Origin: Sarcomyxa edulis
Lineage: Eukaryota > Basidiomycota > Agaricomycetes > Agaricales > Mycenaceae
Reading direction: 5' to 3'
DNA length: 64,000 nucleotides
Assembly: GCA_009761415.1 (NCBI GenBank)
Contig: QUOL01000002.1
Location: forward strand, 1-64,000
The first letter of the stretch is position 1. Every line of letters starts with the position of its first letter. Both the position numbers and the translations under genes were made by a program. The notes below the pieces were generated by a model. It was given only the letters and a program-made list of their open reading frames with translations, made no database searches and had not been told where the DNA came from. Of this stretch, positions 1,597-22,570 are shown one piece after another.

Positions 1597-1995
1597 CCCT
1601 ATACCTCCATTTTGAGCACCCAACCGTCCAAAACCCCGGAGAAATGAGTGCAGGATGTCCTGATCTTTGTTGGAGCTTCGGCTACCAGATTGATCGATGT
1701 TCTACGGCCTCAGGAGGTGTACGGTGACTTTTCCGCCGGGCGTACCTTAGTTGTGTACCCCACTGAAGACGGTGGCCAAGTCGAAATTTTGTTCCGACCG
1801 GATCGAATGTGGCGCTCCTGGTGGCTGTCTGAGCCCAGCGATGATGGGCCTCCTGCGAGCTCATACGGGAGGGGTTTTGCAAACGCTCTCGGGTATGAGG
1901 TCCTGGGACCCTAACGGAACTTTCTGGGTACTCACGACCGTAAACCCCCGACCCTTCTTAACGGGCCCCCCCGTTAAGGGCCTAATTAGAGTAGG
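1597..1995 (+). repeat. Type-A terminal module, copy 1 (hairpin + TAGG end)
   Basis: This ~400-bp non-coding module recurs at 10160-10573 (nearly identical) and, strongly diverged, at 8345-8745. It ends with a hairpin at 1957-1978 (arms CTTAACGG and CCGTTAAG around a C-rich loop) and then exactly 17 nt finishing in TAGG at 1995. Conserved islands shared by all three copies are GTCGAAATTTTGTTCCGA, CCTGCGAGCTCA and GAGGTCCTGGGACC. Immediately after TAGG the truncated helicase gene begins. Mild open frames in it are not convincing genes. Confidence 0.75.
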
Positions 1996-4900: not shown

Positions 4901-6863
4901 ACGTATTCCTTCTAGCAATGTTGCACCTCGAATGAAATATTTCAGCTTGGCAAATAACTGAGTTACTTCATGTGGTCGTTTGAAATTGCCGTCCTCGTTG
5001 AGACAATAAATTGCAATCAAGCATTCCAATGTATCGTCCCATTTAGAATAGTTGTCGGTATTGGCTTCCAGATTCCGGGGTGCTAAGAAGCTTAATGAAA
5101 AGTCGTGAATTGTTTCGATTGTGTCGCCTTCCCCGTCGTTTAGAATGTCGATCAATTTCAGTCCGCATTGGATTTGGTCAGGATCAAGTGGGAACTGATA
5201 GTCGGTTGGTGGGTCCCTTTGTAATGTGATAAGGAGTGCGTGGATGAATTGAATAAGAAGTGTTCCATATGCCTTGAGTGTAACGTCATCGGAATGAACA
5301 CGCCAATGTTCATGGTTACCAGCATTTCTAAGAAGGATCTTCAATTTCTACCAAAATCATGTATAAGTTTGATATTCTATACTCACCTTGGACATTCCAT
5401 CAGTAACCGTTTGATTCCAATAGCTGACTGTCTTGCATTATCCCGTACAATCACCATATATTGAAAGACCATTTCTTTCAACCGAATAAAAAGTGGTGAT
5501 GAGTTACGCAAGGAGGGTAGTGCCATCAGTTTACGCAATCCTTCAATTCTTCCCTTGTCGTTTGTGTAGTCCTGAAGATGAAGATGCCATCCGGTAACCT
5601 GGAGTAATGGAGGAATTTCGCGGACATGTGTGGCAGGAGCAACTATTGTCGACGAACTGAACTGAGGAACTTGTTTTTGCAAATAAACAGTGAAGGGGTT
5701 ATCCGTTCGTAAGCGTGTCAGTGTTGCATTAACCCTAAACCAACGCTGAGGACTTGGTCGAAAAAACGTCTGGATATCCGCAAGTGTGAATGCATTCCGT
5801 GCAGGAGTTGTGACATCACGATGCTTTTTGCACCAATGAGTTTCGAAAGTATTGAATGTTGGACTGCAATAGTCACAACGTATACAGCAATGACCGTTTG
5901 GGGTAATTGATAAGCCTTCGATTGGCGGACCACCGGGTAATGGAGGTGTGATATTTGAACTTTTGTCCACATTATGCGCCAAAAGTTCTGATTGAAGCTC
6001 CTGAGATTGTTGCTTTGTAGGATTGAGACCGTGCATTTTGAGGTGCCCCATCAGACTGCTAGGTATCCATGCTGATCCACACACCATGCAGTGGATTGTC
6101 TTGAAGATACTGTGAATCCGCAGGGAAAATAGGGCTAAGATTGTCGAAGTCACCAAATAACAGACTTGACCATTTAAAGATTGTGCTATAACAATGTTAA
6201 CATATCAGAACATAGTATACGTTTCATGTAAAAAAAAGAAGTTTACAAGGAGTTGAGTCAACTGTCGTCAAAGAGATTTCGTTTTTCTTCTCAATGATTT
6301 CAAGAGAAGAAGGTGGTGGCCGAGAATACGGGTGATGCCTTTCGCTAATGTCACGAGTGCGGTGCTGACGTTGTGGCCCAATATCCAATTGCAATGATGC
6401 AGGGGGTACCATCGATTCCAAAGAAGCATTTTCTTCAACAACATCCATGGCCATTTCTATTGATCGGACCGCATCAGCATTACTTTTAATATGTGCTGTT
6501 TTGATACCGTGATGTTTTTTGATGTGCGTGATAACAGTCCGGGCATTTGCAAAAGTTTCAGAACAAGGTTGAAATGGGCAGGCCACATTGTTTGTAGGCC
6601 CCGATCGATTCAAAATGTATGATTTATCTATGTTTTTTGTTGATATATCAGTAAGTGTATAGTTTTATATAACATTGATTTTACCATCCGCAATAAGTCC
6701 ATAAACATCCAAATGATAGGATGTATTGTGAGTAAACATGGCTGAAGCCCCTGAAGCCACACTTGTATTGCAAGTGGGACAAAGAGGCCTGATTAACAAT
6801 ATACATCAGTTTAATTGTAACAAATTTAGAATAATCCACTTGCATTGTCTGTTGATGTGACAA
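1996..6863 (-). CDS. Telomere-linked RecQ-like DNA helicase, C-terminus truncated
   Basis: This multi-exon gene encodes an SF2 ATP-dependent helicase of the kind found beside telomeres in many fungi. The N-terminal exons carry several zinc-finger-like motifs: CPTC near 6790, CPFQPC with HIKKHH near 6550, CMVCG with HLKMHG near 6050, and CIRCDYC with HWCKKH near 5850. This resembles the OrsD/DUF3505 arrangement. A splice joining GCGGATG (before a GTAAAA donor) to ATAAATCA keeps the frame between the first two blocks. The helicase part has motif I ILPTGGGKS (about 3056-3083), motif II LVIDEAH (about 2745-2770) and motif VI YQGAGRTGRNG (about 2180-2210). The RecQ-type ending (CRRFGVGEIMDGTGTRC) stops at the TAGG junction of the type-A repeat. 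The reading frame then runs into repeat sequence until about 1861, so the native C-terminus is lost. Exon borders between 4865 and 6224 are not fully resolved. The first coding exon may start upstream of 6863. Confidence 0.85.
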
Positions 6864-6899
6864 TCAAGTGTCTCAATATGTGATGATGGTGGTTAGAAA

Positions 6900-8095
6900 G
6901 GAAGAAAGAAATTAATTAATCAACTTTGCTTGGAGCAGTACAGCCACTTCAGCCACAATATCAACAATAGCCAAACATTGTCTTGAGACTCTCTTTGGTT
7001 CTTTATTTACATTGTGGCTGAACCAGCACTGCCACTGAACTGGATGTTCACCAGACATGACAGAGAGAGACCAAACAATACTTTTAAAGTATAGTTTGGT
7101 TTCAGGCACCTTATAGATGATGTCTACATTTTCAATCATGTGATTTGATGCATATTTGAACTATTTCAAAAAAGGGGGGCACAGATTTGTTCAGTGCAGC
7201 ACAGCCACTTCAGCCACCCCAGCCACAATGTCAACAATAGCCAAACATTGTCTTGAGACTCTCTTTGGTCTCTTGTTTACATTGTGGCTGAAGCAGCACT
7301 GCCACTCAACTGGATGTCCACCAAAACATCACAGAGAGACCAAACAATACTTCTGAAATATAGTTTGGTTTCCAGGCACCTCTTAGATGGTGCCTGCAAT
7401 TTGAACCATGTGATTTGACCCATATTTGAGCTGTTTCAAAAAGGGGGGGCACAGATTTGTTCAGAGTAGCACTGCCACCTCAGATACAATGTCAACAAAG
7501 CCAAACCAAGCCTTGAAGCTCATGTTGGTTCTGTTTGGTATCAGCACTGCCATCATGTCAACAGAGCCAAAGTGAGCCTTGAAGCTCATGTTGGTTCTAT
7601 TTGGTTTTAACACTGCCACCATATTAAATATAGCCACCAGACATCACAAAAAGACCACACAATACTTCTGAAATATAGTTTGGCTCCCAGGCACGTCATG
7701 GATGATGCCTACATTTTCAATCATGTGATTTGGTGCATATTTGGCCTGTTTCAAAAAAGGGGGGCACAGATTTGTTCAGTGCAGCACTGCCACCATGTCA
7801 ACAAAACCAAAGTCGGCTTTGAAGGTCAAGTTGGTCCTGTTTGGTTTTAGCACTGCCATCATGTCAACAGAGCCAAAGTGAGCATTGAAGGTCATGTTGG
7901 CACTGTTTGGTTTCAACACTGCCACCACACTAAATATAGCTACCAGACATCACAGAGAGACCAAACAATACTTCCAAAGTATAGTTTGGTCTTCAGGCAC
8001 CTTACAGATGGTGCCTGCATTTTGAACCATGTGATTTGACCTATATTTGACCTGTTTCAAAAAAGGGGGGCACAGATTTGTTCAGTGCAGCACAG
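6900..8095. repeat. Four ~310-bp subtelomeric tandem repeats
   Basis: Each unit has a run AAAAGGGGGGCACAGATTTG (at about 7160, 7436, 7753 and 8058), a hairpin ACCAAACAATACTT/AAGTATAGTTTGGT (about 7068, 7338, 7650 and 7962) and CAGCACTGCCAC phrases. Unit lengths vary from about 275 to 317 bp. The hairpin is the same as in the ~100-bp repeats at 317-1060, in inverted orientation, so the two repeat families share ancestry. Confidence 0.85.
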
Positions 8096-8344
8096 CCACA
8101 ACTTTTGAACCCACCAAGCAGAACATGTATCCCTAACTCTGTGGTAAAAGACATCCCTAACCCACCTGTTTAAGATATTATATATTCAGTATCATACATG
8201 TATCCCTAACCACAGATGAAAAGAATGATTCCTAACTCCACTGTAGTGGGTGGCTCAGAGTCACAGTCACAGTCACCCAACATTGACCGGCCATTTGCCA
8301 GCCAACCTGCAGCGGCTAGAACTAGTTCTCATGGGGTATGACAG
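8096..8344. other. Gene-free spacer with telomere-like motifs
   Basis: There is no coding frame. Telomere-like words (ATCCCTAACT, ATCCCTAACCC, ATCCCTAACC) occur four times between 8126 and 8235, followed by a small CAGTCA microrepeat near 8262. I see nothing else. Confidence 0.6.
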
Positions 8345-8745
8345 ATGTATCCTATACCTTCCATTTGAGCACTCGAACACGTACTAGCCACCCCAAATGA
8401 GTGCTAGCCGTGCCCGTCAATGTTGGGTCACGGTGCAGCCATTGACGCCTTGTTTGCGCGGTGAAAACAAGTGCGCGTACGTTCCCACGTGGTGCACCCA
8501 GGTTTTTGACCTCTACGAACGCCGTGGTGCGGTCGAAATTTTGTTCCGAGCGTGTTTTTACCACCCCTCCTGGTGCCCCCCCACTTTTCAGTAATCGGCC
8601 CGCTGCGAGCTCAGTTTTACCGGCTAGCCCTAGATCTTTTGGGGCTGAGGTCCTGGGACCACTAGCCAGCCTCCGGAACGCCTAGCCGGCCCTAGCCAGA
8701 CGTCGGGTTGACGGGCCCCCCCGTCAACCGCCTAATTAGAGTAGG
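8345..8745 (+). repeat. Type-A' terminal module (diverged, hairpin + TAGG end)
   Basis: This is a diverged relative of the modules ending at 1995 and 10573. It shares their islands (TGGTGCGGTCGAAATTTTGT, GCTGCGAGCTCA, GAGGTCCTGGGACC) but differs over most other positions. Its terminal hairpin has arms GGTTGACGG and CCGTCAACC (8706-8729) in place of CTTAACGG/CCGTTAAG, followed by CCTAATTAGAGTAGG ending at 8745. The repeat block beginning AAAGAAGTGTAATTC follows directly. Confidence 0.75.
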
Positions 8746-9480
8746 AAAGAAGTGTAATTCTATCTTTAGCTGTGATCTGTGATGGAACAAACAATACTCC
8801 CAAAGTATTGTTTGGCTCTCTTCTAAGTCTTGATGATATTTATTTTTAGAACTAGATCAAACTCTGATCAAGTGCCTGAATGCTGATGGACATGTGTCAT
8901 GAACCAAACTATACTTCCAAAGTATTGTTTGGCTCTGGTCTGATTTCAATATCTATATTTAGAACCAGATCAAGTGCCTGGATGCTGATGAACATGTGTC
9001 ATGAACCAAACTATACTTCCAAAGTATTGTTTGGCTCTGGTCTGATTTCAATATCTATATTTAGAACCAGATCAAGTGCCTGGATGCTGATGAACATGTG
9101 TCATGAACCAAACTATACTTCCAAAGTATTGTTTGGCTCTGGTCTAATCTCAATACCTATCTTTAGAACTTGATCAAACTTTGATTGAGTGCCTGGATAC
9201 TGACATGTATCATGAGCCAAACTATACTTCCAAAGTATTGTTTGGCTCTGGTCTGATTTCAATATTTATATTTAGAACCAGATCAAGTGCCTGGATGCTG
9301 ATGGACATGTGTCATGAACCAAACTATACTTCCAAAGTATTGTTTGGCTCTCTTCTCACTTTTGATGATATTTATTTTTAGAACTAGATTAAACTCTGAT
9401 CAAGTGCCTGAATGCTGATGAACATGTGTCATGAACCAAACTATACTTCCAAAGTATTGTTTGGCTTCTTGCTGACTTTT
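8746..9480. repeat. Tandem ~100-bp hairpin-bearing repeats (copy 2)
   Basis: This is a near-identical second copy of the block at 317-1060, with one repeat unit order changed. The high identity shows a recent segmental duplication or exchange between subtelomeric blocks. Confidence 0.9.
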
Positions 9481-10159
9481 ACAGTCAATGAATGCTGTAG
9501 TCCTGTGAAATTTTCCTTAGTTTGGTAAAACAATACATGTCTTGACTTGAGGTGTATATTTGTTTATAGTGCTTGTTGCCAAACCTAATTTTAGTTACAG
9601 ATCAGTGATCCCTAACTTCAGTTCAAACATGGGTGATTTTGCTTTCTTGTGCACACATATTGTATACTCATGATACAGACTTTCCTGAGATGAAAAACAC
9701 AGGACATGATCATACTGATCTATGTAGCAATATTGTTTGGTGTTTCAGATCAACTTATGAGATGGTCTCCTGCTGGACCTTTGTTGGGCCAGCACTCATG
9801 GGTGCTCTGGTGATCTCAAATGAAGGGGGTTTACTTAGTGCTTGTGGGTACCATTAATACTACCCTATCCCTTCATTCTGAGCACCCAACCATCCAAAAC
9901 CCCGGAGAACTGAGTGCAGGATCTTTTGCTGGAGCTTTGTTGGGCCAGCACTCCTGGGTGCTGTGGTGATCTCAAATGAAGGGGGTTTACTTAGTGCTTG
10001 TGGGTACCATTAATACTACCCTATCCCTTCATTCTGAGCACCCAACCATCCAAAACCCCGGAGAACTGAGTGCAGGATCTTTTGCTGGAGCTTTGTTGGG
10101 CCAGCACTCCTGGGTGCTGTGGTGATCTCAAATGAAGGGGGTTTACTTAGTGCTTGTAG
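9481..10159. repeat. Subtelomeric spacer and three ~157-bp units (copy 2)
   Basis: This matches 1061-1596 almost base for base but holds three ~157-bp units (from about 9764, 9921 and 10078) instead of two. The unit-number difference explains most of the length difference between the two duplicated blocks. Confidence 0.8.
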
Positions 10160-10573
10160 GATCCATTAATACTACCCTATACCTCCATTTTGAGCACCCA
10201 ACCGTCCAAAACCCCGGAGAAATGAGTGCAGGATGTCCTGATCTTTGTTGGAGCTTCGGCTACCAGATTGATCGATGTTCTACGGCCTCAGGAGGTGTAC
10301 GGTGACTTTTCCGCCGAGCGTACCTTAGTTGTGTACCCCACTGAAGACGGTGGCCAAGTCGAAATTTTGTTCCGACCGGATCGAATGTGGCGCTCCTGGT
10401 GGCTGTCTGAGCCCAGCGATGATGGGCCTCCTGCGAGCTCATACGGGAGGGGTTTTGCAAACGCTCTTGGGTATGAGGTCCTGGGACCCTAACGGAACTT
10501 TCTGGGTACTCACGACCGTAAACCCTCGACCCTTCTTAACGGGCCCCCCCGTTAAGGGCCTAATTAGAGTAGG
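10160..10573 (+). repeat. Type-A terminal module, copy 2 (hairpin + TAGG end)
   Basis: This is nearly identical to 1597-1995; one visible difference is CGCCGAGCG for CGCCGGGCG. The hairpin is at 10535-10556 and the 17-nt tail ends in TAGG at 10573. Here the module abuts a short type-B end rather than the helicase, which fixes the module boundary at TAGG. Confidence 0.78.
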
Positions 10574-10643
10574 CGCAGGTCAGCGCAGCTCAATTCCCAA
10601 AAGTTTTGCCAATGCCCCATTGGCAAAATTCCAAGAAGATAGG
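10574..10643 (+). repeat. Solo type-B terminal fragment (hairpin + TAGG)
   Basis: These 70 bp are the last 70 bp of the module at 20820-21779, base for base. The hairpin at 10604-10628 has arms TTTTGCCAATG and CATTGGCAAAA around CCC, followed by 15 nt ending in TAGG. No upstream part of the module is present, so it is a severely 5'-truncated copy. Confidence 0.85.
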
Positions 10644-11739
10644 TAGAGAATTTCGGACGAGAGATGGATAGGGGATCTCGGTGATGGAAGCAAAACAGGG
10701 AATGCGACAAAGTAGAGAGATTGGCAGGAGAGGGGAAAATAAGAAGAGAGGTGAGGCGATGTGACTTCGTTGTTCGAGGGTAGGACTTTTCGGAGGATGC
10801 GCATGTAACCGTGAATTCCTCCCGGGATTATCGGGATGTCTTGACGAGGTCATGGAATTTGGTCTCCGTAATCGATATCTGCGATATGGAACAAGATGAG
10901 GGATTTGCTTACCTAGAGTTCCAATCCCTCGCGAGTCCTGAGTCCCACCACTAAATCCTCTTCGTATCTAAAATATGAGGTAGGATCTGTTACAGTATGT
11001 GGAATAAGATCAGTGCAGACAAGTAATAAGATCAGTATAGATAAGTGGAAAAAACGGTAGGACTCACCGAGTTTTATGTGGTTAAGTCGAGAAAATACGA
11101 GTTTTATGCAATCCGGGAGGTAGGTCGCAAATTTGACACGGAGAGTTGCGCAGTGGTGTTGCTGTAGTACATGTGGTGAGTGACGAGGAGAGGACAAGGA
11201 GAGGATAGGGCTGACTGTGGAAGGGACTGTGCGGAGCTGTGTGAGTATAGAGTGAGCGGAGATTTGAACTGTGACCGCAGACTGCGTACATAGTTCAAGC
11301 TCCGACGGCACAGTCCGCGCTGCTGTGGAAGCTGTGCACAGTCAAATTGAAGCTCCGAACGGCTGTGCACAGACTCCGATCACAGTACGGGCTGTGGACA
11401 GCACAGTGGCCGGCTGTGGGGAGGGACTGTGGTTGGCTGTGGAAGCTGCGTGGCCGGCCCGGTGGACTTCCGGAGAGTAGGGACACAGAACTGGGGGCTC
11501 CGGGGAACTGAGTAGCCGGTAGACGACTGTGTAAATGGCGTCGACACCGCAGCCGGCCCGCCAAGTGGCGTGGGAAACGCGGTCCTCCTCGAACAATCCT
11601 ACGTTCGAGGCCACCGTTTGACCTCAATACCTCACGGAATATTATGATGTTGGTATCTATATGGAGCTACAATATGGGGGGTCATTATAACCGAAGGAAT
11701 TTTTTTAATCTTGACTCTACCTATTTCTACAGGCAATTT
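10644..11739. other. Gene-free subtelomeric sequence with CTGTG-rich block
   Basis: I recognise no gene. Between about 11210 and 11530 the pentamer CTGTG or its complement CACAG occurs every few bases, often as GCTGTGGA or CTGTGCACAG, giving high local self-complementarity. Open frames there are shadows of the repeat. Without the retrotransposon, 11739 would join 17896. Confidence 0.5.
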
Positions 11740-11744
11740 AGTGT
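11740..11744. repeat. Target-site duplication AGTGT, left copy
   Basis: AGTGT immediately precedes the left LTR and is repeated directly after the right LTR at 17896-17900, as expected for integration of a Ty3-type element with 5-bp staggered cuts. Confidence 0.9.
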
Positions 11745-12176
11745 TGTCAGGGCAACACCAATCTATACAAGACCAGCGGGCCACTGAAGCGTCACGAGCG
11801 AAAGGCGAGAACAGAGAAAGAGGAGGAGAGGAGATACAAAGGGAAAGAGAGAGGAGAGGGAAGCGATAGAAGACACTACAGGAGTTATATGACTTAGGTT
11901 CCCACTAGATTGGCGGTAATCCTGAGAGATCGAACTGAGGATCCCCAGGGTGCATAGCGCCCTTTATATATCTACCTACATTACATGATTGGTAAGCTAT
12001 AGAATCCTATGGAACATAATGGAACACCGTTAGTAAGATGATGATGCAACTCCGCAGCACCTTAGTAATCGCATCAGTCAGCAGCAGGAATAAAGGTATC
12101 CCAAGGAATAACTATAGCCCCCTGATAAGATAAGATAAGATCAAAGATAAAGTCCAAAATGAGTCGTTTCCTGACA
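11745..12176 (-). repeat. Ty3 element 3' LTR
   Basis: This 432-bp long terminal repeat starts TGTCAGG and ends CCTGACA, so its ends are inverted repeats. By eye I found no difference from the LTR at 17464-17895. The element is transcribed on the minus strand, which makes this the 3' LTR. A purine-rich stretch lies inside it. Confidence 0.95.
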
Positions 12177-12190
12177 TCACCCCCCTTCTA
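12177..12190 (-). other. Polypurine tract of the Ty3 element
   Basis: Read on the minus strand, AGAAGGGGGGTGA directly precedes the 3' LTR, the expected position of the primer for plus-strand DNA synthesis. It overlaps the pol stop codon by only a few bases. Confidence 0.75.
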
Positions 12191-15100
12191 GGTCGAATCG
12201 TCCTCGATATGACTACGATTAAGTGGTATCGACCAAGTCGGGATGTGTTTTGTCCTTTCCTTCTCCAAGACTGAGATTGTGGCATCAGTGTAGGTTTCGA
12301 GAGGTCTAAACGGCAGTTGAGTGAAGAGTGCAGCGTTAATCCGTCGCGGTGCATTGGGGTGCAACTGATGGAACTGTCGAACCAGTCTTTTTGCACGATC
12401 AACGTTATCCTCCGGTTCCCAGGTGTTGTGTTCGTCGGTGTACCCCTTCCACTTGATCAAATAGTACAGCTTGCCTCGTTCCAACTTAGAGTTCAAGATT
12501 TCTTCAACTTCGTATCGGGGTTCACCTTCGACCTGGATTGGAGGGGGAGGATCGGATCTTTGGCCTTCGATCTGGGGTGGAACGTAGCGTCGCAGTTTGG
12601 AGACATTGAATACGGGGTGTAGCTTGTTGTAACGCTTTGGCAACTTGAGTTTATACGCGTTGGGCGACACAACTTTGGTGATTTCGAATGGTCCGTCCCG
12701 CTTGTGACTTAGCTTTTTGGAGGGGCGGTCTGTCTTGATGTCGCTCAAGTCAAGGTACACCTTGTCTCCAACCTTGTACTGTGGGGTTTCGATCCGACCT
12801 TGATCTGCAAATCTCTTCATCTCATCTGCCGCCTTATTTAGAGCCGCTTCTACTTCCTCATGGACCTTTTTCATGCGTAGTGCAAAGTCCTCAGCAGCTT
12901 CTGACTTGACATTCCTTTTCGGCTCGACCCCCATCCTTGGATGTCTTCCAGTATTGGCGTAGAAGGGGGAGACTTGAGTCGACGACGAAACTCGGTTGTT
13001 AAGCGCAAACTCGGCGATGGCTAGCCAATCAGCCCAATCATTTTGCCTATGATTGATGAACAAGCGAAGATATTGTTCAATTTCCTGGTTGGTTCTTTCC
13101 GTTTGTCCATCACTTTGAGGGTGGTAGGCTGTCGACAGTTTGCGTTTGACACCGAGTAGCGTGTGAAGGTCTTTCATGAGCTGCGAGGCAAATTGCGGTC
13201 CGCGGTCCGAGATGACTGAGTCCGGGAGACCGTGGTACCTCCAGACGTGATCTCTGTAAAGCGCGGCTAGTCCAAGGGATGACAATTCTTCGGAGCATGG
13301 GATGATGTGGGTCATTTTGGTGAATCTGTCAACGACCACGAGAATTGCATCGTTCCCTTGGCTATCTGGCAGTCCAGTGATCAAATCTACGGAGATATCT
13401 GTCCACGGCGCCGAAGGGGTGCGGTTAGGCATGAGCTTTCCTATTGGTGGGGCAGGGAATGTCTTTGTTCGATTACATTTGTCGCAACCTTCGATGTACT
13501 GGGTTACGAATTTAGTCATTCCTGGCCACCAGTAGTTCCTGCTCATGAGCTCTAGGGTCTTCCACTTTCCAGGGTGTCCCACGACTGCAGAATCGTGATG
13601 TAATTCCACAATCTTTCGCCGTAGTTCTTCCTTCTTAGGGACGTAGACTTTTCCTCGGAATAGTATCAACCCTTGCTCTTCTGACCACTCTTCTTCTCTG
13701 AGACGTCTGACAGGGGAATGTTTGAGTTCTTCAACAGCTTTGACCACCGACTCATCATAGTCTTTGCACTTTCTGATGTCTGATAAAATGCTAGACTCGT
13801 TGTTTTCGATCAAAACGTGGCCCTGTTGAAGCGCTCGGATTCGGAAAAACTCTGGTTTCAGAAGGATTTGGTTCTGGTTATCCTCTTCCCCCTTGTCATG
13901 ATCTGCTCGTCTCGAGACATAATCTGGTTTGGCCGATGCAGACCCTGGTCGGTGTTTCAGCACAAAATCAAATCGCGATAGGTAAAGTGCCCATCTCGCT
14001 TGTCGTCGATTCAAGTTCCGTGCTGTTTTGAAGTATTCCAGGTTCTTATGGTCGCTCCAGATTACCACCGGGTGGTCAGCCCCTTCGAGGTAGTGTCGCC
14101 ATTCTTCCAAACATCGAATGATGGCTAGCATTTCTTTATCGTGTATATCATAGTTGCGTTGCACATCATTCAATCCTTTGGAGAGATAGGCGCACGGTCT
14201 CCATTTACCATCATCACAGAGCATGCTTAGAATACCCCCAGTCGCATGACCTGAGGAGTCGGCCTCAATCTTCATCTGCTTTGTCGGGTCAGGATATACG
14301 AGGACAGGCTCGGAGGAGAATCTTCTCTTTAACTCGTCGAATGCCTTTTGTTGTTCCTCCGTCCATTTCCATGGTGCATCCTTCCGAGTGAGCTGATGAA
14401 GGGGTTTTGCCACTTTAGAGAATCCCTCTATGAAGCGCCGGTAGAAGTTAGCAAAGCCGAGAAAGGCTTGCAGCTCCTTGACTTTTGTTGGTACCGGCCA
14501 CTTCATGACTGCTTCGACTTTCTTGGGGTCCATTCTAATGTGGTCACCCGAGATGATGAGACCGAGGTATTCCAGCTCTGTTTTCTCAAACTCGCATTTT
14601 TCGGGTTTAAGGAATAGATCATTGTCTCGTAGGATTTCAAGAACTTGTTTGACTATTTTCCTGTGTTCTTCCAGTGTCTTGGTGAAGATCAGGATGTCGT
14701 CCATGTAAACAATGACTACTCCTTTATCGATCAGCGGTTTGAGAATGTGGTTCATCATGGTCTGGAAGGAAGCCGGCGAATTCATCAGTCCAAAGAACAT
14801 AACGGTTGGTTCGAACATCCCTCTGTTGGTTTTGAAGGCTGCTTTCCACTCATCCCCTTCCTTGATGCGCAAATTGTTGTATCCCCACCGTAGGTCTAAT
14901 TTGGTGAAGATCTTTGCGTTTTTAAGTTTATCAACAAGTTCGGGGATTAGGGGTAGTGGGTAAGCGTTCTTGACTGTGTGGGAGTTCAGATGCCGATAGT
15001 CTTGAACCGGGCGATTCGTACCGTCTTTCTTCTTCACGAAGAAGAAGGGAGCCGCTTGGGGAGACTTCGAGGGTCGGATATATCCTTTGCGTAGGTTCTC

Positions 15101-15919
15101 GTCGATGAATTCGTCGAGTTCCTTTTGTTCTTTTGGTGACAGAGGGTACAGTTTAGGGTTTTGAGGGATAAAGGTGTCTTTCAGATCTATGGGATGGTCC
15201 CAAGGTCGTCGTTCAGGGAGTCGTTCCGACGCCTTCTTTTCGAACAGTTCTAAGAATTCATGATACTGTTCGGGGACTATGGTTTCGGGTTTAGGTTTAG
15301 ATTGAAAGACCCCTGCGTCACCAGCAAAGAATATCCGTTCCGTTGGAATTTCTTCATACTCGTCGTCTTCTTTATGAGCCCAAGGATCATACCACGTGTG
15401 GTAGATGGCTTCTTCGTCTTCACCTTCTTCATCTTCGTTGACCATGGTGGGGAATGGGGTCTTAGCTTTGGCTTTTGCCTTGCGGCGTACCTTAGCGTCG
15501 TACCCACATTCTTTTGGACACCTAGTCATCTCCACTTCACCCTTTTCCCAGTCTATTTCCGGGTTGTGCTTCTTCAACCAGGAGTGTCCGATAATAACCG
15601 CCATCTTCCCAAGGTTGGTGATCGCAAAAGTAGCACGTTCCTTATGCCCCTTATAGTTCAGGATCATGTCTACTTCTTCTGTGATCGACCCTCCTTCGTT
15701 CAGGGTTCCATCTACATTGTATACTTGAATGGGTCTTTTCAGTCGTCGGGTTGCTAGCCCATTGCCTTTTGCAAATTCTTTATCCATAAACAATGTAGTG
15801 GCCCCTGAATCCAGCAACGCATCAATGTTGATTGCACGATGAGTGTCAAGAGTTCTAAGACCAACGTTCATAGAAACGTGTGTCTTAAGGTTGAGGGTTC
15901 TGACATAATGTTTTTCCAC
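12188..15919 (-). CDS. pol: Ty3/gypsy Pol polyprotein with chromodomain
   Basis: Uninterrupted pol frame of about 1240 residues. In order: aspartic protease (ALLDSGATTLF near residue 37), reverse transcriptase (KLDLRWGY, then catalytic VYMDDIL near residue 410), RNase H (KIEADSSGHATGG, later WSDHKNLEYF), integrase (HHDSAVVGHPG with CDKC zinc-binding region, then a D,D,E core with SVDLITGLPD, ISDRGPQF and SDGQTERTNQEIEQYL) and a C-terminal chromodomain (YEVEEILNSKL, YLIKWKGY, NTWEPEDN). The chromodomain places it among chromodomain-bearing Ty3 elements, which direct integration to particular chromatin. The first listed codon, at 15919, is GTG. The frame stays open upstream and overlaps the end of gag in the -1 frame, so Pol is probably made as Gag-Pol by frameshifting. 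All catalytic motifs are intact. Confidence 0.95.
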   Translation of the reverse strand: MEKHYVRTLNLKTHVSMNVGLRTLDTHRAINIDALLDSGATTLFMDKEFAKGNGLATRRLKRPIQVYNVDGTLNEGGSITEEVDMILNYKGHKERATFAITNLGKMAVIIGHSWLKKHNPEIDWEKGEVEMTRCPKECGYDAKVRRKAKAKAKTPFPTMVNEDEEGEDEEAIYHTWYDPWAHKEDDEYEEIPTERIFFAGDAGVFQSKPKPETIVPEQYHEFLELFEKKASERLPERRPWDHPIDLKDTFIPQNPKLYPLSPKEQKELDEFIDENLRKGYIRPSKSPQAAPFFFVKKKDGTNRPVQDYRHLNSHTVKNAYPLPLIPELVDKLKNAKIFTKLDLRWGYNNLRIKEGDEWKAAFKTNRGMFEPTVMFFGLMNSPASFQTMMNHILKPLIDKGVVIVYMDDILIFTKTLEEHRKIVKQVLEILRDNDLFLKPEKCEFEKTELEYLGLIISGDHIRMDPKKVEAVMKWPVPTKVKELQAFLGFANFYRRFIEGFSKVAKPLHQLTRKDAPWKWTEEQQKAFDELKRRFSSEPVLVYPDPTKQMKIEADSSGHATGGILSMLCDDGKWRPCAYLSKGLNDVQRNYDIHDKEMLAIIRCLEEWRHYLEGADHPVVIWSDHKNLEYFKTARNLNRRQARWALYLSRFDFVLKHRPGSASAKPDYVSRRADHDKGEEDNQNQILLKPEFFRIRALQQGHVLIENNESSILSDIRKCKDYDESVVKAVEELKHSPVRRLREEEWSEEQGLILFRGKVYVPKKEELRRKIVELHHDSAVVGHPGKWKTLELMSRNYWWPGMTKFVTQYIEGCDKCNRTKTFPAPPIGKLMPNRTPSAPWTDISVDLITGLPDSQGNDAILVVVDRFTKMTHIIPCSEELSSLGLAALYRDHVWRYHGLPDSVISDRGPQFASQLMKDLHTLLGVKRKLSTAYHPQSDGQTERTNQEIEQYLRLFINHRQNDWADWLAIAEFALNNRVSSSTQVSPFYANTGRHPRMGVEPKRNVKSEAAEDFALRMKKVHEEVEAALNKAADEMKRFADQGRIETPQYKVGDKVYLDLSDIKTDRPSKKLSHKRDGPFEITKVVSPNAYKLKLPKRYNKLHPVFNVSKLRRYVPPQIEGQRSDPPPPIQVEGEPRYEVEEILNSKLERGKLYYLIKWKGYTDEHNTWEPEDNVDRAKRLVRQFHQLHPNAPRRINAALFTQLPFRPLETYTDATISVLEKERTKHIPTWSIPLNRSHIEDDST

Positions 15920-16029
15920 AGGGGGTTTCGATTCGTGAGCGGGGGAAACAACTTTATTTTCTTCAAAATGTACATGTTTTTCTATTCTAGAATCGGAACC
16001 CTTGGTAGCGGCAATCGAGTTTGTGGAAG

Positions 16030-17019
16030 TTACTGATTGCCGTTTTGAAAACCCTCTTCCTTTCGGAAGTACTCTCTCAACTCGTCAAACGTCATGCTTC
16101 TGATGTCGGCATAGGTACAGTTACGAGCGATGTGTCCTAGCCGTTGGCAACGGAAGCATTTGATAGGTGGACGTTTGCCGGCGCGATCCACATCCATGGC
16201 GTCTGGGTCCCTTTGCCTTGGCGCATCGGGCTGACGTTGAGGTGGTACAACTGGGGCTGGAGGCGGAGCTACTGGTTTGTCTCGACGAGGTTGTGTCCTG
16301 GATGTGTCGTTCCAGACGTTCTTGGCTTTCTCGTTGTAGCGAATGCGTTGATTGTCCAGCTTTAGCACCCATTCGTACCAGCCAGCCAGGGTGTTTGGCA
16401 TAGCAGGTAATGCGTAGACGCGTTCTCGAAGCCGATGGTTTAGACCCGTTTCAAACTTTTCAATCAACGCTACCTCATTGTACCCAGTACGTGGGGCGAT
16501 CGATGCAAAAGCCCGGACGTACTCGTCGGCGGTCTGGCTGCCCTGGAACAACTTGCTCATGTCAGTCTGAGCCGTATCCTGGGGATTGGGATCGGCAAAA
16601 GACTTTCTGAATTTTTGGATAAAGTCATTCCAGCTGGTGAAGGGAGCCTGTCGCCGGAGAGAGGTCATAGGATCTATTGTTCCAACCTGACTGATAGCCG
16701 TTAACGCCAAATCCACAAAGGTTTGTGCGGTTCCCCCCTGGATGTATGAGAGCGCAAACGAGATTTTGGTATCATCGTTTGGGAACTCAATGGCTCGACC
16801 GTTCATATAGTTGATGTTTTCGTTGATGAACGCATCAGCCTGGGCTTTGTCTCCAGAGAAAATACGAGGGGGATTGATTTTAGGAAGTCGGGGATGAGGG
16901 GCAGGAAGTGGTTGCGGCATGGGTTGTGGCTGGGGTTGGGCAAGCTGTTGGTTCAGCAGGTTGGTGAGGGCGGCGATTTGGGTTTCGAGTTGCGTAATGC
17001 GGTCATCAGGGTCCTCCAT
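16030..17019 (-). CDS. gag: Ty3/gypsy Gag protein
   Basis: This 329-residue Gag starts with ATG at 17019. A proline/glutamine-rich N-terminal part (about residues 25-45) precedes the capsid-like region (AFINENINYMNGRAIEF to FETGLNHRLRERV). A basic linker follows, then one zinc knuckle CFRCQRLGHIARNC near residue 290 for RNA packaging. It ends at TAA 16030, downstream of which pol continues in the -1 frame. No stop or frameshift interrupts it. Confidence 0.93.
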   Translation of the reverse strand: MEDPDDRITQLETQIAALTNLLNQQLAQPQPQPMPQPLPAPHPRLPKINPPRIFSGDKAQADAFINENINYMNGRAIEFPNDDTKISFALSYIQGGTAQTFVDLALTAISQVGTIDPMTSLRRQAPFTSWNDFIQKFRKSFADPNPQDTAQTDMSKLFQGSQTADEYVRAFASIAPRTGYNEVALIEKFETGLNHRLRERVYALPAMPNTLAGWYEWVLKLDNQRIRYNEKAKNVWNDTSRTQPRRDKPVAPPPAPVVPPQRQPDAPRQRDPDAMDVDRAGKRPPIKCFRCQRLGHIARNCTYADIRSMTFDELREYFRKEEGFQNGNQ

Positions 17020-17463
17020 GGTAGTAGCAAGAGGAGATGCGAGGTGGGAAGGAGTTATGGAAAGGTGGGGAGGTTACTACAGACACGATCGAATGCGTGA
17101 TACTAAACAGGTCCCCGTTGGTTAGACGGATCAACCCAACCGGATAGTATGCACGAGCGAAAACAATATGAGTGTAGCGCGGTATGCGTAAGGCGAGGTG
17201 CCGTTAGCTTGTGTTCTGTTGCTACTCAGACAATATCCTTCTTCTGTTCCAAAAGGACTATTGCGCGGTTAAGCCTTGGCGACTACTGCAGATCTGAAGT
17301 CGGGCTCAACGTTACTTCAGATTATGCTTGTCAGCTGAGTTGAGTGGAACACAAGTTCTTGATGGCGAGGTAAAAGGTAGTTAGTAATGTGAATGGAAAG
17401 AGGGAATGGAGGGGCGCAGCGTGTATTTCAGGATTAGGGCGTCGTAGGGTGAGTTCGATCTTC

Positions 17464-17895
17464 TGTCAGGGCAACACCAATCTATACAAGACCAGCGGGC
17501 CACTGAAGCGTCACGAGCGAAAGGCGAGAACAGAGAAAGAGGAGGAGAGGAGATACAAAGGGAAAGAGAGAGGAGAGGGAAGCGATAGAAGACACTACAG
17601 GAGTTATATGACTTAGGTTCCCACTAGATTGGCGGTAATCCTGAGAGATCGAACTGAGGATCCCCAGGGTGCATAGCGCCCTTTATATATCTACCTACAT
17701 TACATGATTGGTAAGCTATAGAATCCTATGGAACATAATGGAACACCGTTAGTAAGATGATGATGCAACTCCGCAGCACCTTAGTAATCGCATCAGTCAG
17801 CAGCAGGAATAAAGGTATCCCAAGGAATAACTATAGCCCCCTGATAAGATAAGATAAGATCAAAGATAAAGTCCAAAATGAGTCGTTTCCTGACA
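17464..17895 (-). repeat. Ty3 element 5' LTR
   Basis: 432 bp, starting TGTCAGG and ending CCTGACA, matching 11745-12176 throughout by eye. For the minus-strand element this is the 5' LTR, carrying its promoter. The leader between 17020 and 17463 has no gene of its own. Confidence 0.95.
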
Positions 17896-17900: not shown

Positions 17901-18479
17901 CAGGTTTTGGCTTTTTCAGTGAATGACCCATTACACAAGCAATAATGTGGGGGAAACTTCCAGAGTTTAGTCATATACTCTCTGAAGTACCCTGATCAAG
18001 GCTAGGTACTTTGCTAAGGGAGGGGACGAGGGGCAAAGGTACTAATTCAGCTCCCAAGTTGCCGAGTGCCCGATTTCTCGGTCCAAAACACCCCTTACTG
18101 TGTCCCATCGTACGGACGTATAGAGGGTCCGATTACGTAATCCTATCCACGGGATATACTATTTCGAACCCTGGCTACAAAACTGTCTCCTCAGAATTTT
18201 GAAATTTCAATTCCTTCCAGGTGTTTTTGGCCGACTGTGTTGAGGATATCGGTGTGGTTTTCTGTGTTGGTAATAATACTAGGAGGGTACCAAAAAATCA
18301 GGTTTTTTACACTCATGAATTCTAGGAAGCTCAGTATAGCATGGAAAATAGATATAGCCAAAGGTAAGATCTTGGAGGCTTAGTGCGGTGAGTTGCCTGA
18401 ATGGGTAGGATCGGTTGCGCTGTGCAGAGCCTATACCCTCCAACCTGGTGTAGTGGATGTGTGATTTTGGAACTTTGTT
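17901..18479. other. Gene-free subtelomeric sequence
   Basis: This is the continuation of the segment interrupted by the retrotransposon. I see no gene, RNA or repeat in it. Confidence 0.4.
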
Positions 18480-18624
18480 CCATAACTCCTAACCCTTCAA
18501 GACCAACCCTAACCTCTAATACTGGCTTTTCTTTTTTCTTTTATGATCCTCAACCCTAACACCTAACACTAACCCTAACACCTAACCTCCTAACCTCCTA
18601 ACTACCCCAACCCTAACGTCCTAG
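18480..18624. repeat. Degenerate interstitial telomere repeat
   Basis: Words such as CCTAACCC, AACCCTAACACC, CACTAACCCTAACACCTAAC and CCTAACCTCCTAAC occur over about 130 bp, interrupted by a T/C-rich stretch. The C-rich strand has the same orientation as the telomere at position 1. The array directly precedes the first module of the hairpin/TAGG mosaic and looks like a former chromosome end now internal. Confidence 0.75.
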
Positions 18625-19564
18625 TTTTGCGGTTAGCGGCTAATTCCGATTTCTTGTCTGAAGGCTTAATCCTAGTCTTTGTGCATAATCAGAGTAAACT
18701 CTGATTATAATAACACTGACTGCTAATATTGAAAACTTGACCGTGGGAATATTTTGGAATGTGCATATACCATCATGACCGGAATCATGACATTTCATAA
18801 CAAGGTTTTTTTCTTGAAATCTGTACTTCGAAACTGGTCTTATAGGGATAATGCAATTATAATGCTGTTAAATGCTTATTAATTCAAGCCAAATATTCCT
18901 GCAGGTTCATTGGCTGGACCGATGGTCATGAAATTTTTTGAGGGTAGGCGTATGCATATTAGAACTATATTCCCAAAGTTTCAAGGTTGGCGCACACTAT
19001 ACAGGTGCTGGCGTAGCTATATAATGGGTGGAAAATAGGAATTTGGGTGTAAACTGGCAATGGCGCAGAGGTATATACACAAAAAAAATTCCAAACTCTG
19101 CGGTAGTCAGCTCTGGACATATACGCTAGTATTTCAAAAGAAACCTAAGGATTTGGACGGATACCCGCGCCCTACGCTTAGATACAACTTTGGCATTCTG
19201 GCCAAAGTTAAATAGGCGGGTATAGGCTACGCCTTATATATTTTTATGAATGGACTCTTGGGACGGGTCACCTGACCATGTACGCCAACCCTCATTTCAA
19301 AAAAAGTGGGTATATAGCAAGGCGTACCCAGGCGTAGCCTGTTCTTTCAGCCAAATCAGATTTCTGACACCTCTGGATGTTTGTGGCTGAAACCAAACAA
19401 AGGCAAACACATACACATCAGATTTTTGCATTTTCCGGAAGCCAGGAAGCGTACGCTCATGACGGTATAACTTTTTTGACATATTGCATACGGGCGTAGC
19501 CAGGCGTAGCTTGAAACTTTCCAAGCCGGACAATGGGGCATTGTCAAATTTCCCACCCATTAGG
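18625..19564 (+). repeat. Module E1, full-length type-B' element (~0.94 kb)
   Basis: A non-coding module that begins TTTTGCGGTTAGCGGCTAATTCC after a TAG and ends with hairpin arms GACAATG/CATTGTC (19529-19545), 19 nt and TTAGG. It is a diverged homologue of 20820-21779: both start TTTTG-AGCTAATTCC-like, both carry TGACCGTGGGA and TATACCATCATGA-CGGAATCAT near 100-160 bp in, and both end with GGCG-AG-CAGCG-AGC-type sequence before the hairpin. The short open frame on the minus strand near the end is not conserved and I do not call a gene. Confidence 0.7.
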
Positions 19565-19612
19565 CCAAAAAAGATGGAATAGGGTACCCTATTCCAGGAT
19601 CAGAAGGATAGG
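19565..19612 (+). repeat. Module E2, solo type-C' terminal fragment
   Basis: 48 bp consisting of a short lead, the perfect 20-bp palindrome GGAATAGGGTACCCTATTCC (19576-19595) and 17 nt ending in TAGG. The same fragment ends module E5 at 20784-20819, where it is followed by different sequence. Confidence 0.75.
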
Positions 19613-20363
19613 GGGGGTAGCGGCTGATTCCGATTACGGGTCTAACGGCTTCATCCCTGTTTCACTTGCGTTTTGACCGTTCTTTGTCTTGATCGTCTTG
19701 TATCGGTCTGTCCACTTCGATGGTTCGCTCTTTGATCTGATGTTTTTGCGTCTCTAATGCATACACTTCATCTCGATCTTGGGGTTGCACGGCTGAAGGT
19801 TGATTGCCTTCTTGTCTTGCCTCTCAGAGTTGGTTTTTTGTTTTTGTCGCAACTGATGCTTTGACCGTTCACTTTGGTCTTTGTCTCGCGCTTGGTGTAT
19901 GGTTGACGTCTTCTCCACTTCGATGGTTCCCTCTTTGATACCTGATTTTTACTTCTCACTCAGACACGTCTTGTCACTCGCTTTTGCGTTTTTTGATGTT
20001 TCCAAATAACAAGCCAGTGTCTTATTTGAAAAATGCTCTGGTTCCCTCTTTGATCCCTGATTTTTACTTGTCTCTCTCAGACACGTCTTGGTAGTCGCTT
20101 TTGCATTCTTGGATGTTCCAAATAACAAGCCAGTGTCTTATTTGGAAAATGCTCTGGCTCCTACTGTTGTGTCAAAGAACGCCCTATTCCGTCACAGGAC
20201 GCCCTATTCCGTGACCGAACGCCCTATTCCGTCACAAAACACCCTATTCCGTGACATTTCGTGACTGAACGCCCTATTCCGTCACCTTTTTCGTCCGTTT
20301 TGCCTTGAAATGACCTCGGGGTTAGTGGAATAGGGCGCCCTATTCCCGGATAAGAAACATAGG
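19613..20363 (+). repeat. Module E3, type-C element (~0.75 kb)
   Basis: This starts with G-rich sequence and TAGCGGCTGATTCC, like E1 and E6. It contains two ~120-bp internal repeats (each with CCAAATAA and TTATTTG inverted repeats) and five ~18-bp copies of ACGCCCTATTCCGTSAC between 20173 and 20300. It ends with the palindrome GGAATAGGGCGCCCTATTCC (20327-20346), 17 nt and TAGG. A longer-repeat copy is E7. No gene. Confidence 0.75.
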
Positions 20364-20407
20364 GGTTAGTGGAATAGGGCACCCTATTCCCGGATAAGAA
20401 ACATAGG
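20364..20407 (+). repeat. Module E4, solo type-C'' terminal fragment
   Basis: 44 bp: GGTTAGT, then the near-palindrome GGAATAGGGCACCCTATTCC (20371-20390) and the same 17-nt tail ending in TAGG as E3. It is a terminal fragment without an upstream body. Confidence 0.75.
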
Positions 20408-20470
20408 CGCCTTGCAGCGCCTGGCTGACGCCTAGTACTTGGCGATTGCAGCAATCGCCAAATTCTAAGG
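20408..20470 (+). repeat. Solo type-B'' terminal fragment
   Basis: GCG-rich lead similar to the sequence before the type-B hairpins, then a perfect hairpin with arms TTGGCGATTG and CAATCGCCAA around CAG (20439-20461), then ATTCTAAGG. The tail is shorter (9 nt) and ends TAAGG rather than TAGG, so it is the weakest member of the family. Confidence 0.5.
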
Positions 20471-20819
20471 TATAAGACTTCAACAGCCAGATGGTTGAAC
20501 CAAGTCTATATGTGTGAGAATGAGCAGATATAAGAAGCCAAGATAGATGGAGTAGAGATTGGTTTCTACAAGAGTGATACAGTGTAGGTGCAGTTTTGAG
20601 TCTATATGTGTGAGAGTTGGCAGATATAAAATGTACATATCTTGAGACAGAACACATCTGATGGAATAGGGAATTTCAATTCCCCTTTTCCAAGAAATCA
20701 CTCGTGTGTTGGAATAGGGGGCTAAATAATGCCCTATTCCACAGATTTTTTGCCAAATTAGGCCCAATTAGGCCAAAAAAGATGGAATAGGGTACCCTAT
20801 TCCAGGATCAGAAGGATAG
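20471..20819 (+). repeat. Module E5, type-C' element
   Basis: About 350 bp, non-coding. It contains a second inverted repeat TGGAATAGGG/CCCTATTCCA (20710-20741, 12-nt loop) and ends with the palindrome GGAATAGGGTACCCTATTCC (20784-20803) and a tail ending GGATAG at 20819. The next module begins immediately. The last 58 bp match the E2 fragment and its lead. Confidence 0.65.
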
Positions 20820-21779
20820 TTTTGAGTTGACAGCTAATTCCTAGTCTTTGGGAGTCTGCAGCATGATATTGATCCCCCTGAGGGCAGACCCGGTAGCATT
20901 TCAATAGTTCGCTGGCTTGGAAAATGAATTATCTGACCGTGGGAAAGTACGATAATCTGTATATACCATCATGATCGGAATCATCAGGTTTCCTAGGTAG
21001 GTTTTTTTTTTTAAACCTGAATGTCAAAACCCGTGTAATACGGCAGATGATACCAAAGTGATACCATTGATACCAAACTTGATACCATTTGATACCAGCT
21101 TAATAGTGAGCAGGACTGGCTGAACCAATATACACCAAAATTTGAGGGTGCAGAGATATACCCTATCCAATGAACTCCTCAAATTCCCACGGTCATCGGA
21201 TGCTATATAGTGGCAGCGCAGCCTCTTTAATATTCCAAATCTCAATTTAACGATTATTTTGGTATAAAACGAGCTGTGCCTCTGCCTATACTCAGCCCAA
21301 AAATATGAAACTTTGTGTGGAGTATCCGATGATGTATCCAAACATATTCCAAAGAGAAAGTATGCAAACGTACATGTTCTCACTTCACTCGGTGCCCCCT
21401 ATCATTGAGATTCTTCCCAAATCCAAATCAGCTCTAGCGGGGTGGGATATATAGGTACCTCATAAATCTCTCTGGTTTAGGTGTTCTTTATATCCCAAAA
21501 ATACATACCATTCAAAAAAATAGTGAAATTCCCCAGGCGCGGGTCAGCGCAGCATTTCGGTATCGGATGAAAAGTGCTTACGCCTGCTCTGTGGAAATGA
21601 GGCTATTATATATTAAGGGTATATACATATAGGTGAAAATTTTATATTTTCCGAAAGCTGAGATGCGTGCGCTCACTTTCTGATACTTTTTATGACATTT
21701 GGATACAGGCGCAGGTCAGCGCAGCTCAATTCCCAAAAGTTTTGCCAATGCCCCATTGGCAAAATTCCAAGAAGATAGG
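20820..21779 (+). repeat. Module E6, full-length type-B element (~0.96 kb)
   Basis: This starts TTTTGAGTTGACAGCTAATTCC directly after TAG and ends with hairpin arms TTTTGCCAATG/CATTGGCAAAA (21740-21764), 15 nt and TAGG. It is a diverged homologue of E1. Its last 70 bp recur alone at 10574-10643. The minus-strand open frame 21024-21383 is not preserved in E1 and I do not treat it as a gene. Confidence 0.72.
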
Positions 21780-22570
21780 CTTCATCCCTGTTTCACTTGC
21801 GTTTTGACCGTTCTTTGTCTTGATCGTCTTGTATCGGTCTGTCCACTTTCATGGTTCGCTCTTTGATCTGATATTTTTGCGTCTCTGATGCATACACTTC
21901 ATCTCGATCTTGGGATTGCACGGCTGAAGGTTGGTCTGCCTTCTTGTCTTGCCTCTCAGAGTCAGTCTCTGTTTTTGTCGCAACTGATGCGTTGACCGTT
22001 CACTTTGGTCTTTGTCTCGCGCTTGGTGGATGGTTGACGTCTTCTCCACTTCGATGGTTCCCTCTTTGATACCTGATTTTTACTTCTCACTCAGACACGC
22101 CTTGTCACTAGCTTTTGCGTTTTTTGATGTTTCCAAATAACAAGCCAGTGTCTTATTTGAAAAATGCTCTGGTTCCCTCTCTGATCCCTGATTTTTACTT
22201 GTCTCTCTCAGACACGTCTTGGTAGTCGCTTTTGCATTCTTGGATGTTCCAAATAACAAGCCAGTGTCTTATTTGGAAAATGCTCTGGTTCCCTCTTTGA
22301 TCCCTGATTTTTACTTGTCTCTCTCAGACACGTCTTGGTAGTCGCTTTTGCATTCTTGGATGTTCCAAATAACAAGCCAGTGTCTTATTTGGAAAATGCT
22401 CTGGCTCCTACTGTTGTGTCAAAGAACGCCCTATTCCGTCACAAAACACCCTATTCCGTGACATTTCGTGACTGAACGCCCTATTCCGTCACCTTTTTCG
22501 TCCGTTTTGCCTTGAAATGACCTCGGGGTTAGTGGAATAGGGCGCCCTATTCCCGGATAAGAAACATAGG
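21780..22570 (+). repeat. Module E7, 5'-truncated type-C element
   Basis: From CTTCATCCCTG this matches E3 closely but lacks the first ~37 bp of E3. It has three ~120-bp internal repeats where E3 has two, and three 18-bp ACGCCCTATTCCG units where E3 has five. It ends with the palindrome GGAATAGGGCGCCCTATTCC (22534-22553) and a 17-nt tail with TAGG at 22570. The next base is inside an intron of the transposase gene. Confidence 0.78.

What the first reader, a model, noticed from the sequence alone, without database searches (positions are those of the whole stretch)
18625..22570. Head-to-tail mosaic of non-coding modules that all end in hairpin + short spacer + TAGG
Seen directly: the stretch can be cut into consecutive modules ending at 19564, 19612, 20363, 20407, (20470), 20819, 21779 and 22570. 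Each end has an inverted repeat (arms 7-11 bp). A spacer follows, 17 nt in most type-C ends, 15 in type B, 19 in type B' and 9 in the weak member at 20470. It finishes in TAGG (TAAGG at 20470; TAG then T at 20819). The same architecture ends the modules at 1995, 8745, 10573 and 10643. At least ten ends share orientation, with the hairpin toward the centromere. Several are solo ends of 44-70 bp without any body. Hairpin-near-3'-end elements are known (Helitrons end in a hairpin plus CTRR), and telomere-attached retroelements (Coprina/Athena Penelope-like) are known in basidiomycetes, but a TAGG-terminated family of this form is not one I recognise. Inference: a non-autonomous family whose TAGG end is the invariant terminus and whose other end is variably truncated.
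Basis: partly seen in the sequence, partly recalled or inferred. Interest (0 to 1): 0.9.

Follow-up and report, generated by a model that had tools for sequence, protein, structure and literature searches.

The report
Elements added onto broken chromosome ends
At the chromosome ends of this mushroom, short mostly non-coding elements have been added over and over, always the same way round and onto ends that had lost their normal telomere, some carrying a helicase gene, which points to an extra way of patching chromosome ends.

Summary
Elements ending in hairpin + about 13-17 nt + ATA (GTA in type C) join their neighbours exactly there. All 128 ends whose places were listed point to the centromere, on 18 contig ends. 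180 joints give 108 different flanks. 'TAGG' needs correction: the G after ATA is also the target's own base in 71 of 73 testable joints (GG in 11 of 11 type-C ones), with further shared bases above chance. 3' ends are fixed, 5' ends scattered, which speaks against ordinary or Helitron insertion. Best reading: RNA-templated addition to eroded chromosome ends, primed by a C-ended 3'-OH that pairs with the RNA's terminal G. TTAGGG has no C, and no type-B end was found on telomere repeats. The same arrays hold a telomere-attached Penelope-like element whose 3' end does sit on telomere repeats (14 of 15); its RT is the likeliest enzyme. Telomere-linked helicase genes ride antisense in type-C elements (8 of 14 copies). 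New variant of telomere-attached retroelements; RNA and enzyme are not demonstrated.

The parts
1..110 (+). telomere, (CCCTAA)n
111..1995 (+). type-C element (youngest on this end), 3' end hairpin CTTAACGGG..CCCGTTAAG + GGCCTAATTAGAGTA, then target GG
1996..8745 (+). type-C element carrying a telomere-linked helicase gene antisense; its telomere-side end was eroded at 1996 (C37, C39 and C22 continue past this point)
2846..4864 (-). telomere-linked helicase ORF (672 aa, DEAD domain); helicase C-terminal domain in ORF 1861-2913, OrsD-like ORF 5383-6156
8746..10573 (+). 5'-truncated type-C element (begins at the equivalent of about position 315)
10574..10643 (+). 70-bp solo 3' end of type A
10644..11744 (+). 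telomere-side part of the element that ends at 19564
11745..17895 (-). LTR retrotransposon (identical 432-bp LTRs, Ty3-type gag and pol on the minus strand, target duplication AGTGT) inserted into that element; not part of the finding
17901..19564 (+). centromere-side part of the same element; telomere-like leader at 18552-18624; end ..CCCACCCATTA then target GG
19565..19612 (+). 48-bp solo 3' end of type B'
19613..20363 (+). 5'-truncated type-B element
20364..20407 (+). 44-bp solo 3' end of type B
20408..20476 (+). short element of a further type (hairpin TTGGCGATTGC/GCAATCGCCAA); second copy in L068; exact end uncertain by a few bases
20477..20819 (+). 5'-truncated type-B' element; start uncertain by a few bases
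20820..21779 (+). type-A element
21780..22570 (+). 5'-truncated type-B element, oldest of the series; its 3' end is found 41 times in the genome, 40 at 100%

Best explanation
These are non-coding (type C: helicase-carrying) retroelements added to chromosome ends that have lost their telomere repeats. Shown by sequence: location at contig ends, one orientation, exact 3' ends, scattered 5' ends, a target G (or GG) at the joint and graded extra microhomology. Inferred: an RNA running from the telomere towards the centromere ends in hairpin + about 15 nt + AUAG(G); the 3'-OH of an eroded end that finishes in C or CC pairs with that G or GG and primes reverse transcription; synthesis stops early or the new end erodes again; another element or telomerase then takes over, the latter sometimes at the telomere-like leader inside the element. 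TTAGGG contains no C, so an intact telomere could not prime. The enzyme is most likely the RT of the telomere-attached Penelope-like element found in the same arrays, acting in trans. I put RNA-templated addition by any RT at about 0.7; the figure below is for the whole statement with this RT.
For: Orientation 100/100, 22/22, 6/6 listed ends, on 18 contig ends. 180 joints, 108 distinct flanks; first flank base G in 87 of 90 distinct A/B flanks and 18 of 18 C flanks. Native G in 71 of 73 (null 0.218, p 1.7e-44); extra shared bases to the left: at least 1 in 33, 2 in 12, 3 in 5, 4 in 3 of 71 (null 0.215, 0.053, 0.016, 0.002). GG in 47 of 87 (null 0.226). 50 of 53 B modules bounded by element ends on both sides are pure 5'-truncated copies, 29-1,637 bp. 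No type-B end followed by CTAACCC within 0-6 nt, whereas the PLE end is followed by telomere-type repeats in 14 of 15. PLE RT frame of 847 aa cut by the telomere, 7 places in the genome; a 79% identical relative folds most like telomerase. Telomerase RT is present in the host. Type-C hairpin covaries.
Against: No RNA data. Type A/B/C ends and the PLE end share no sequence and no hammerhead was found in A/B/C, so use of the PLE RT is a guess from presence. A preference for G could also reflect how ends erode. The 22 tandem-unit joints ACATA|T(G/A)ATCC and one ACATA|AGCC joint lack the G. Hairpin of type B, the commonest end, is no more stable than shuffles. Flanks in duplicated arrays (for example C14) are not all independent events.
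Confidence: 0.42

Rival explanations
1. RNA-templated addition as above, but by another RT: the host's telomerase RT using these RNAs, or the RT of an element I did not recognise.
For: Telomerase RT is present. The PLE prefers telomere repeats, unlike A/B/C. 111 RVT_1 hits exist in the genome and were not followed one by one.
Against: A divergent PLE query found only the same 7 places. Telomerase normally copies an internal template, not an RNA end (established knowledge).
Confidence: 0.28
2. DNA route: pieces of DNA with a defined end are joined to eroded chromosome ends by microhomology-mediated joining or break-induced copying.
For: Graded microhomology at the joint is also what such joining gives; duplicated segments in subtelomeres (C14 loci) show that DNA-level copying happens too.
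Against: It does not by itself give the same ..ATA end in 108 distinct joints while the other end is scattered; microhomology would be free to use any place in the fragment.
Confidence: 0.18
3. Subtelomeric repeats shuffled by recombination alone, with no mobile element.
For: A 1.64-kb unit occurs in tandem (L077) and subtelomeric segments are duplicated.
Against: Exact 3' ends next to many unrelated flanks, including 28 of 108 distinct flanks that match none of the element sequences tested.
Confidence: 0.07
4. Helitron-like rolling-circle elements that end in a hairpin.
For: Hairpin near the 3' end; the genome has 33 Helitron_like_N hits, many in long open frames.
Against: Ends are ATA|G or GTA|GG rather than CTRR (recalled motif), 5' ends are scattered, placement is end-bound and one-way, while the Helitron hits lie on both strands and mostly inside contigs. 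The host Helitrons' own 3' ends were not reached.
Confidence: 0.05

Closest known systems
Terminons / Athena and Coprina, telomere-attached endonuclease-deficient Penelope-like elements (PMC6431247, section 8 read; the two original papers are not held)
   Same: Added to chromosome ends, one orientation, 5'-truncated, head-to-tail and mixed arrays, 3'-terminal RNA fold, other genes caught in the arrays.
   Different: Those end in a hammerhead plus reverse-complement telomere repeats and sit on telomere repeats; the TAG elements have a plain hairpin, a tail ending in AUAG(G), no RT, and sit on non-telomeric DNA. The PLE in this genome fits the terminon description.
HeT-A / TART / TAHRE of Drosophila (recalled; review passages)
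   Same: 3' end fixed and towards the centromere, 5'-truncated, joined to receding or broken ends.
   Different: Those are non-LTR elements with oligo(A) ends in a host without telomerase; here the host has a telomerase RT, the tail is hairpin + AUAG(G), and the joint needs a target G.
MoTeR and FoTeR (PMC12857005 abstract and sections 19-20; PMC8381367 passages)
   Same: Fungal, chromosome ends, truncated copies, helicase regions nearby, internal telomere-like motifs.
   Different: They insert into telomere repeats and encode an RT; helicase regions are neighbours there, not bounded by the element's own 3' end.
Yeast Y' elements (recalled)
   Same: Subtelomeric unit with a helicase gene that spreads to other ends.
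   Different: No fixed hairpin-ATA 3' end; spread there is mainly by recombination.

Membership tests
Telomere-attached Penelope-like element (for the TAG elements) | 3' end joined to telomere repeats | tested here: not met
   0 type-B ends followed by CTAACCC within 6 nt; none of the 108 distinct flanks (all types) starts with telomere repeats
Telomere-attached Penelope-like element (for the TAG elements) | hammerhead near the 3' end | tested here: not met
   no hammerhead core by pattern in the window, L073-L077 or L131 apart from two unrelated matches on the minus strand; no Rfam hammerhead in L073, L076, L077
Telomere-attached Penelope-like element (for the TAG elements) | encodes a PLE RT | tested here: not met
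   no ORF over 87 aa in the B unit, the two A-like elements and the 111-1995 C element tested
Telomere-attached Penelope-like element (for the PLE in L064/L003/L070) | PLE RT, 3' end on telomere repeats | tested here: met
   RT relatives and telomerase-like fold of a 79% relative; 14 of 15 3' ends on telomere-type repeats
Telomere-attached Penelope-like element (for the PLE in L064/L003/L070) | hammerhead | tested here: inconclusive
   core and stems readable by eye, but Rfam 20.4 bits against a gathering score of 48.5, and the minimum-energy fold keeps stem I but not the core
Helitron | fixed 5' and 3' ends, insertion with both flanks kept | tested here: not met
   47-48 different 5' start points in the B unit; 50 of 53 bounded modules 5'-truncated or full copies with another element's end on the 5' side
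HeT-A-like end-attached retroelement | fixed 3' end towards the centromere, scattered 5' ends | tested here: met
HeT-A-like end-attached retroelement | RNA intermediate | not testable with these tools
   no transcript data
HeT-A-like end-attached retroelement | non-LTR gag/RT relatives of the jockey group | not tested
   no such query was run; the elements tested have no long ORF

The most novel reading that the evidence does not exclude
A second end-healing system in a fungus that has telomerase: RNAs ending in hairpin-AUAG(G) are copied only onto C-ended, hence non-telomeric, chromosome ends; the copy brings an internal telomere-like seed that telomerase can extend; and one branch carries telomere-linked helicase genes from end to end, which would explain why these helicases sit at fungal chromosome ends.
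Probability: 0.35. Interest if true: 0.88.

Novelty: new variant of a known kind. Interest (0 to 1): 0.72.

Why it matters
If right, it gives a base-level rule (target G, primer C) by which an element tells a damaged chromosome end from an intact telomere, a possible back-up to telomerase in a telomerase-bearing organism, and a route by which subtelomeric helicase genes spread. All three can be tested in culture with an ordinary mushroom strain.

Tried and rejected

How the joints were counted: of 108 distinct flanks, 31 had no native copy in the sequences held, or too short a flank; 4 had one that could not be compared; 73 remained. One search picked the best-matching native copy, which leans towards overlap; one search used the commonest copy. 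Of the two non-G cases, one has another native version with G. Joints come from the stretches I held, not from all 202 B ends. In one search one of the 48 start points (-28) is an alignment artefact.
Full report
SETTING. The window is the left end of a 2.88-Mb contig (C12) of a 35.6-Mb assembly in 40 contigs and begins with 18 copies of CCCTAA. Named relatives of its helicase are from agarics (Agrocybe, Infundibulicybe, Armillaria, Hebeloma and others), so the host is probably an agaric mushroom; its name was not given.

THE ENDS. The reported hairpins exist; the strict scan finds 9 on the + strand, 2 on the - strand and 0 in each of 50 Markov resamples. A 141-bp type-B 3' end has 41 matches, 40 at 100%; by my reading all 41 are on + near a left contig end or on - near a right one, the farthest at 70 kb (C38; only the best candidates were scored). 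Exact patterns count 202 type B/B' ends (100 listed), 22 type C and 6 type A. The 128 listed ones are all on + in the left half or on - in the right half of their contig, within 62 kb of its end; they lie on 18 contig ends. Subtelomeric segments are partly duplicated (for example in C14), so copies are not all independent.

THE JOINTS. From the stretches held I collected 180 joints with 108 distinct 18-nt flanks. The element side is constant for each type. The first flank base is G in 87 of 90 distinct A/B flanks and in 18 of 18 type-C flanks. The three exceptions are the two versions of a tandem-unit joint (22 places) and one AGCC joint. Where the flank is also known in its native setting, the native base at that place is G in 71 of 73 (null 0.218). 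Identity with the element runs further left more often than chance: at least one base in 33 of 71 (null 0.215), two in 12 (0.053), three in 5 (0.016), four in 3 (0.002), five in 0. A second G follows in 47 of 87 G-first A/B flanks (null 0.226), and native GG is present in 11 of 11 comparable type-C joints. So the G is target sequence that the element may also carry: what one expects if a chromosome 3' end finishing in C or CC paired with the last G or GG of a template.

5' ENDS. 58 of the 108 distinct flanks fall in the 1,637-bp B unit, at 48 computed start points (one an artefact). Of 53 B modules bounded on both sides by element ends, 50 are copies of that unit with an intact 3' end and a 5' end at 30 different places, 29 to 1,637 bp long. 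Their 5' neighbour is another element's 3' end, not the missing part of the target, which speaks against insertion. Nine contig-terminal telomeres were read (C12, C22, C23, C29, C34, C37, C38, C39, C40); in three (C23, C37, C39) the telomere repeats begin within the CCCTAAC-like leader. That suggests, without proving, that the leader serves as a telomere seed.

THE PENELOPE-LIKE ELEMENT. The right end of C34 has an 847-aa RT frame (YIDD) cut by the telomere, a 3'UTR with CCCTAAC-like runs, and a stretch in which I read a hammerhead by eye (stem I GTAGAA/TTCTAC, CTGACGA, GCC/GGC, GAAA, CGAG/CTCG). Rfam gives it 20.4 bits, far below gathering, and the minimum-energy fold keeps stem I but not the core, so it is unproven. 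The RT is found in 7 places, and a divergent relative finds the same 7. Five of them (C34, C1, C3, C19, C9) have the 3' end towards the centromere; C35 fits by position; C33 is a 27.8-kb contig whose telomere side is unknown. The 3' end GCAGACTTCTGAAC occurs 15 times (the pattern asks for a non-G 15 bases on) and is followed by telomere-type repeats in 14. L066 shows unique DNA, then a 5'-truncated B, then telomere repeats, then the PLE; L071 shows a B end joined inside the PLE frame. Two kinds of end-added element thus take turns: the PLE on telomere repeats, the TAG elements on other DNA; no type-B end was followed by CTAACCC within 0-6 nt. 294 relatives of the RT were found, 120 listed. The model of one, 79% identical (mean pLDDT 73.7), has telomerases as its best structural matches.

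HELICASE CARGO. Of 19 matches to the helicase ORF, 14 have 89-100% identity. Eight of these 14 (on C12, C37, C39, C13, C7, C3, C4, C22) lie 3.5 to 4.4 kb from an exact type-C end on the centromere side, antisense to it (distances worked out by hand), and those eight ends join eight different flanks. For the other six I did not look for altered ends. Type-C elements are cut at other points elsewhere (C38 at the equivalent of 7267, C40 at 6122). C37, C39 and C22 continue past the point (1996) where the window copy was eroded before another type-C element was added. The helicase gene therefore seems to travel inside type-C elements; that it helps them is not shown.

HAIRPIN. In seven distinct type-C ends the stem pairs in 95.7% of cells, 5 of 10 pairs have changes on both sides, and the covariation score is 0.571 against 0.201 +/- 0.054 shuffled and at most 0.200 when slid. 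Two of the five measures do not beat the shuffles clearly (pairs with double change reached in 44 of 500, further pair types in 348 of 500), and the sequences are few and related. As single RNAs, A, B' and the helicase-type C fold better than shuffles; B, the 19564 end and the other C do not.

CODING. No ORF over 87 aa in the B unit, the two A-like elements or the 111-1995 C element.

KNOWN KINDS. Terminons: endonuclease-deficient, 5'-truncated, head-to-tail, hammerhead plus reverse-complement telomere repeats (PMC6431247, section 8 read). FoTeRs: on telomere repeats, near helicase regions (PMC12857005, abstract and sections 19 and 20). Subtelomeric RecQ helicases and Penelope-like elements at ends in Agaricus bisporus (PMC7473861, passages). 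MoTeRs and repair of failed telomeres (PMC8381367, passages). A PLE RT that starts synthesis inside an RNA stem-loop (PMC11167929, passages and the abstract lines among them). HeT-A, Y' elements and the Helitron CTRR end are from memory.

VERDICT. Real, widespread and oriented; added to chromosome ends by a process that starts at a fixed 3' end, most simply reverse transcription. A new variant of telomere-attached retroelements, with a joint rule that leaves out intact telomeres and with helicase cargo. That RNA is the template, and which RT copies it, is inference.

Noticed in passing
window 11745-17895: LTR retrotransposon with identical 432-bp LTRs and target duplication AGTGT, so a recent insertion into the array.
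   Followed up: partly
L075:1666-1680: A 15-bp stub of a type-C 3' end between a type-B end and a helicase element: an extremely short addition.
   Followed up: no
L132:121-352, L076:290-350: A further kind of end, AAATCAAGCTTGATTT + CTGGAGGGAATACTAGTAGG, not included in the counts.
   Followed up: no
L066-L070: PLE RT fragments cut near codon 649-667 are fused to a G+C-rich stretch followed by a repeat; on four contigs (C33, C1, C3, C19) the match starts at the same residue, so probably one event copied.
   Followed up: no
G000 (33 places): Helitron_like_N hits, many in open frames of 1,600-2,800 aa, on both strands: possibly active Helitrons.
   Followed up: partly
G000:C1:4137737-4138221: RVT_1 match in two frames about 3 kb from the right contig end.
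   Followed up: no
L077: Head-to-tail array of near-identical 1,637-bp B units whose joint (ACATA|TGATCC) lacks the usual G.
   Followed up: partly
window 23491-24741: Plavaka transposase-like ORF in the DNA just inside the oldest element.
   Followed up: no
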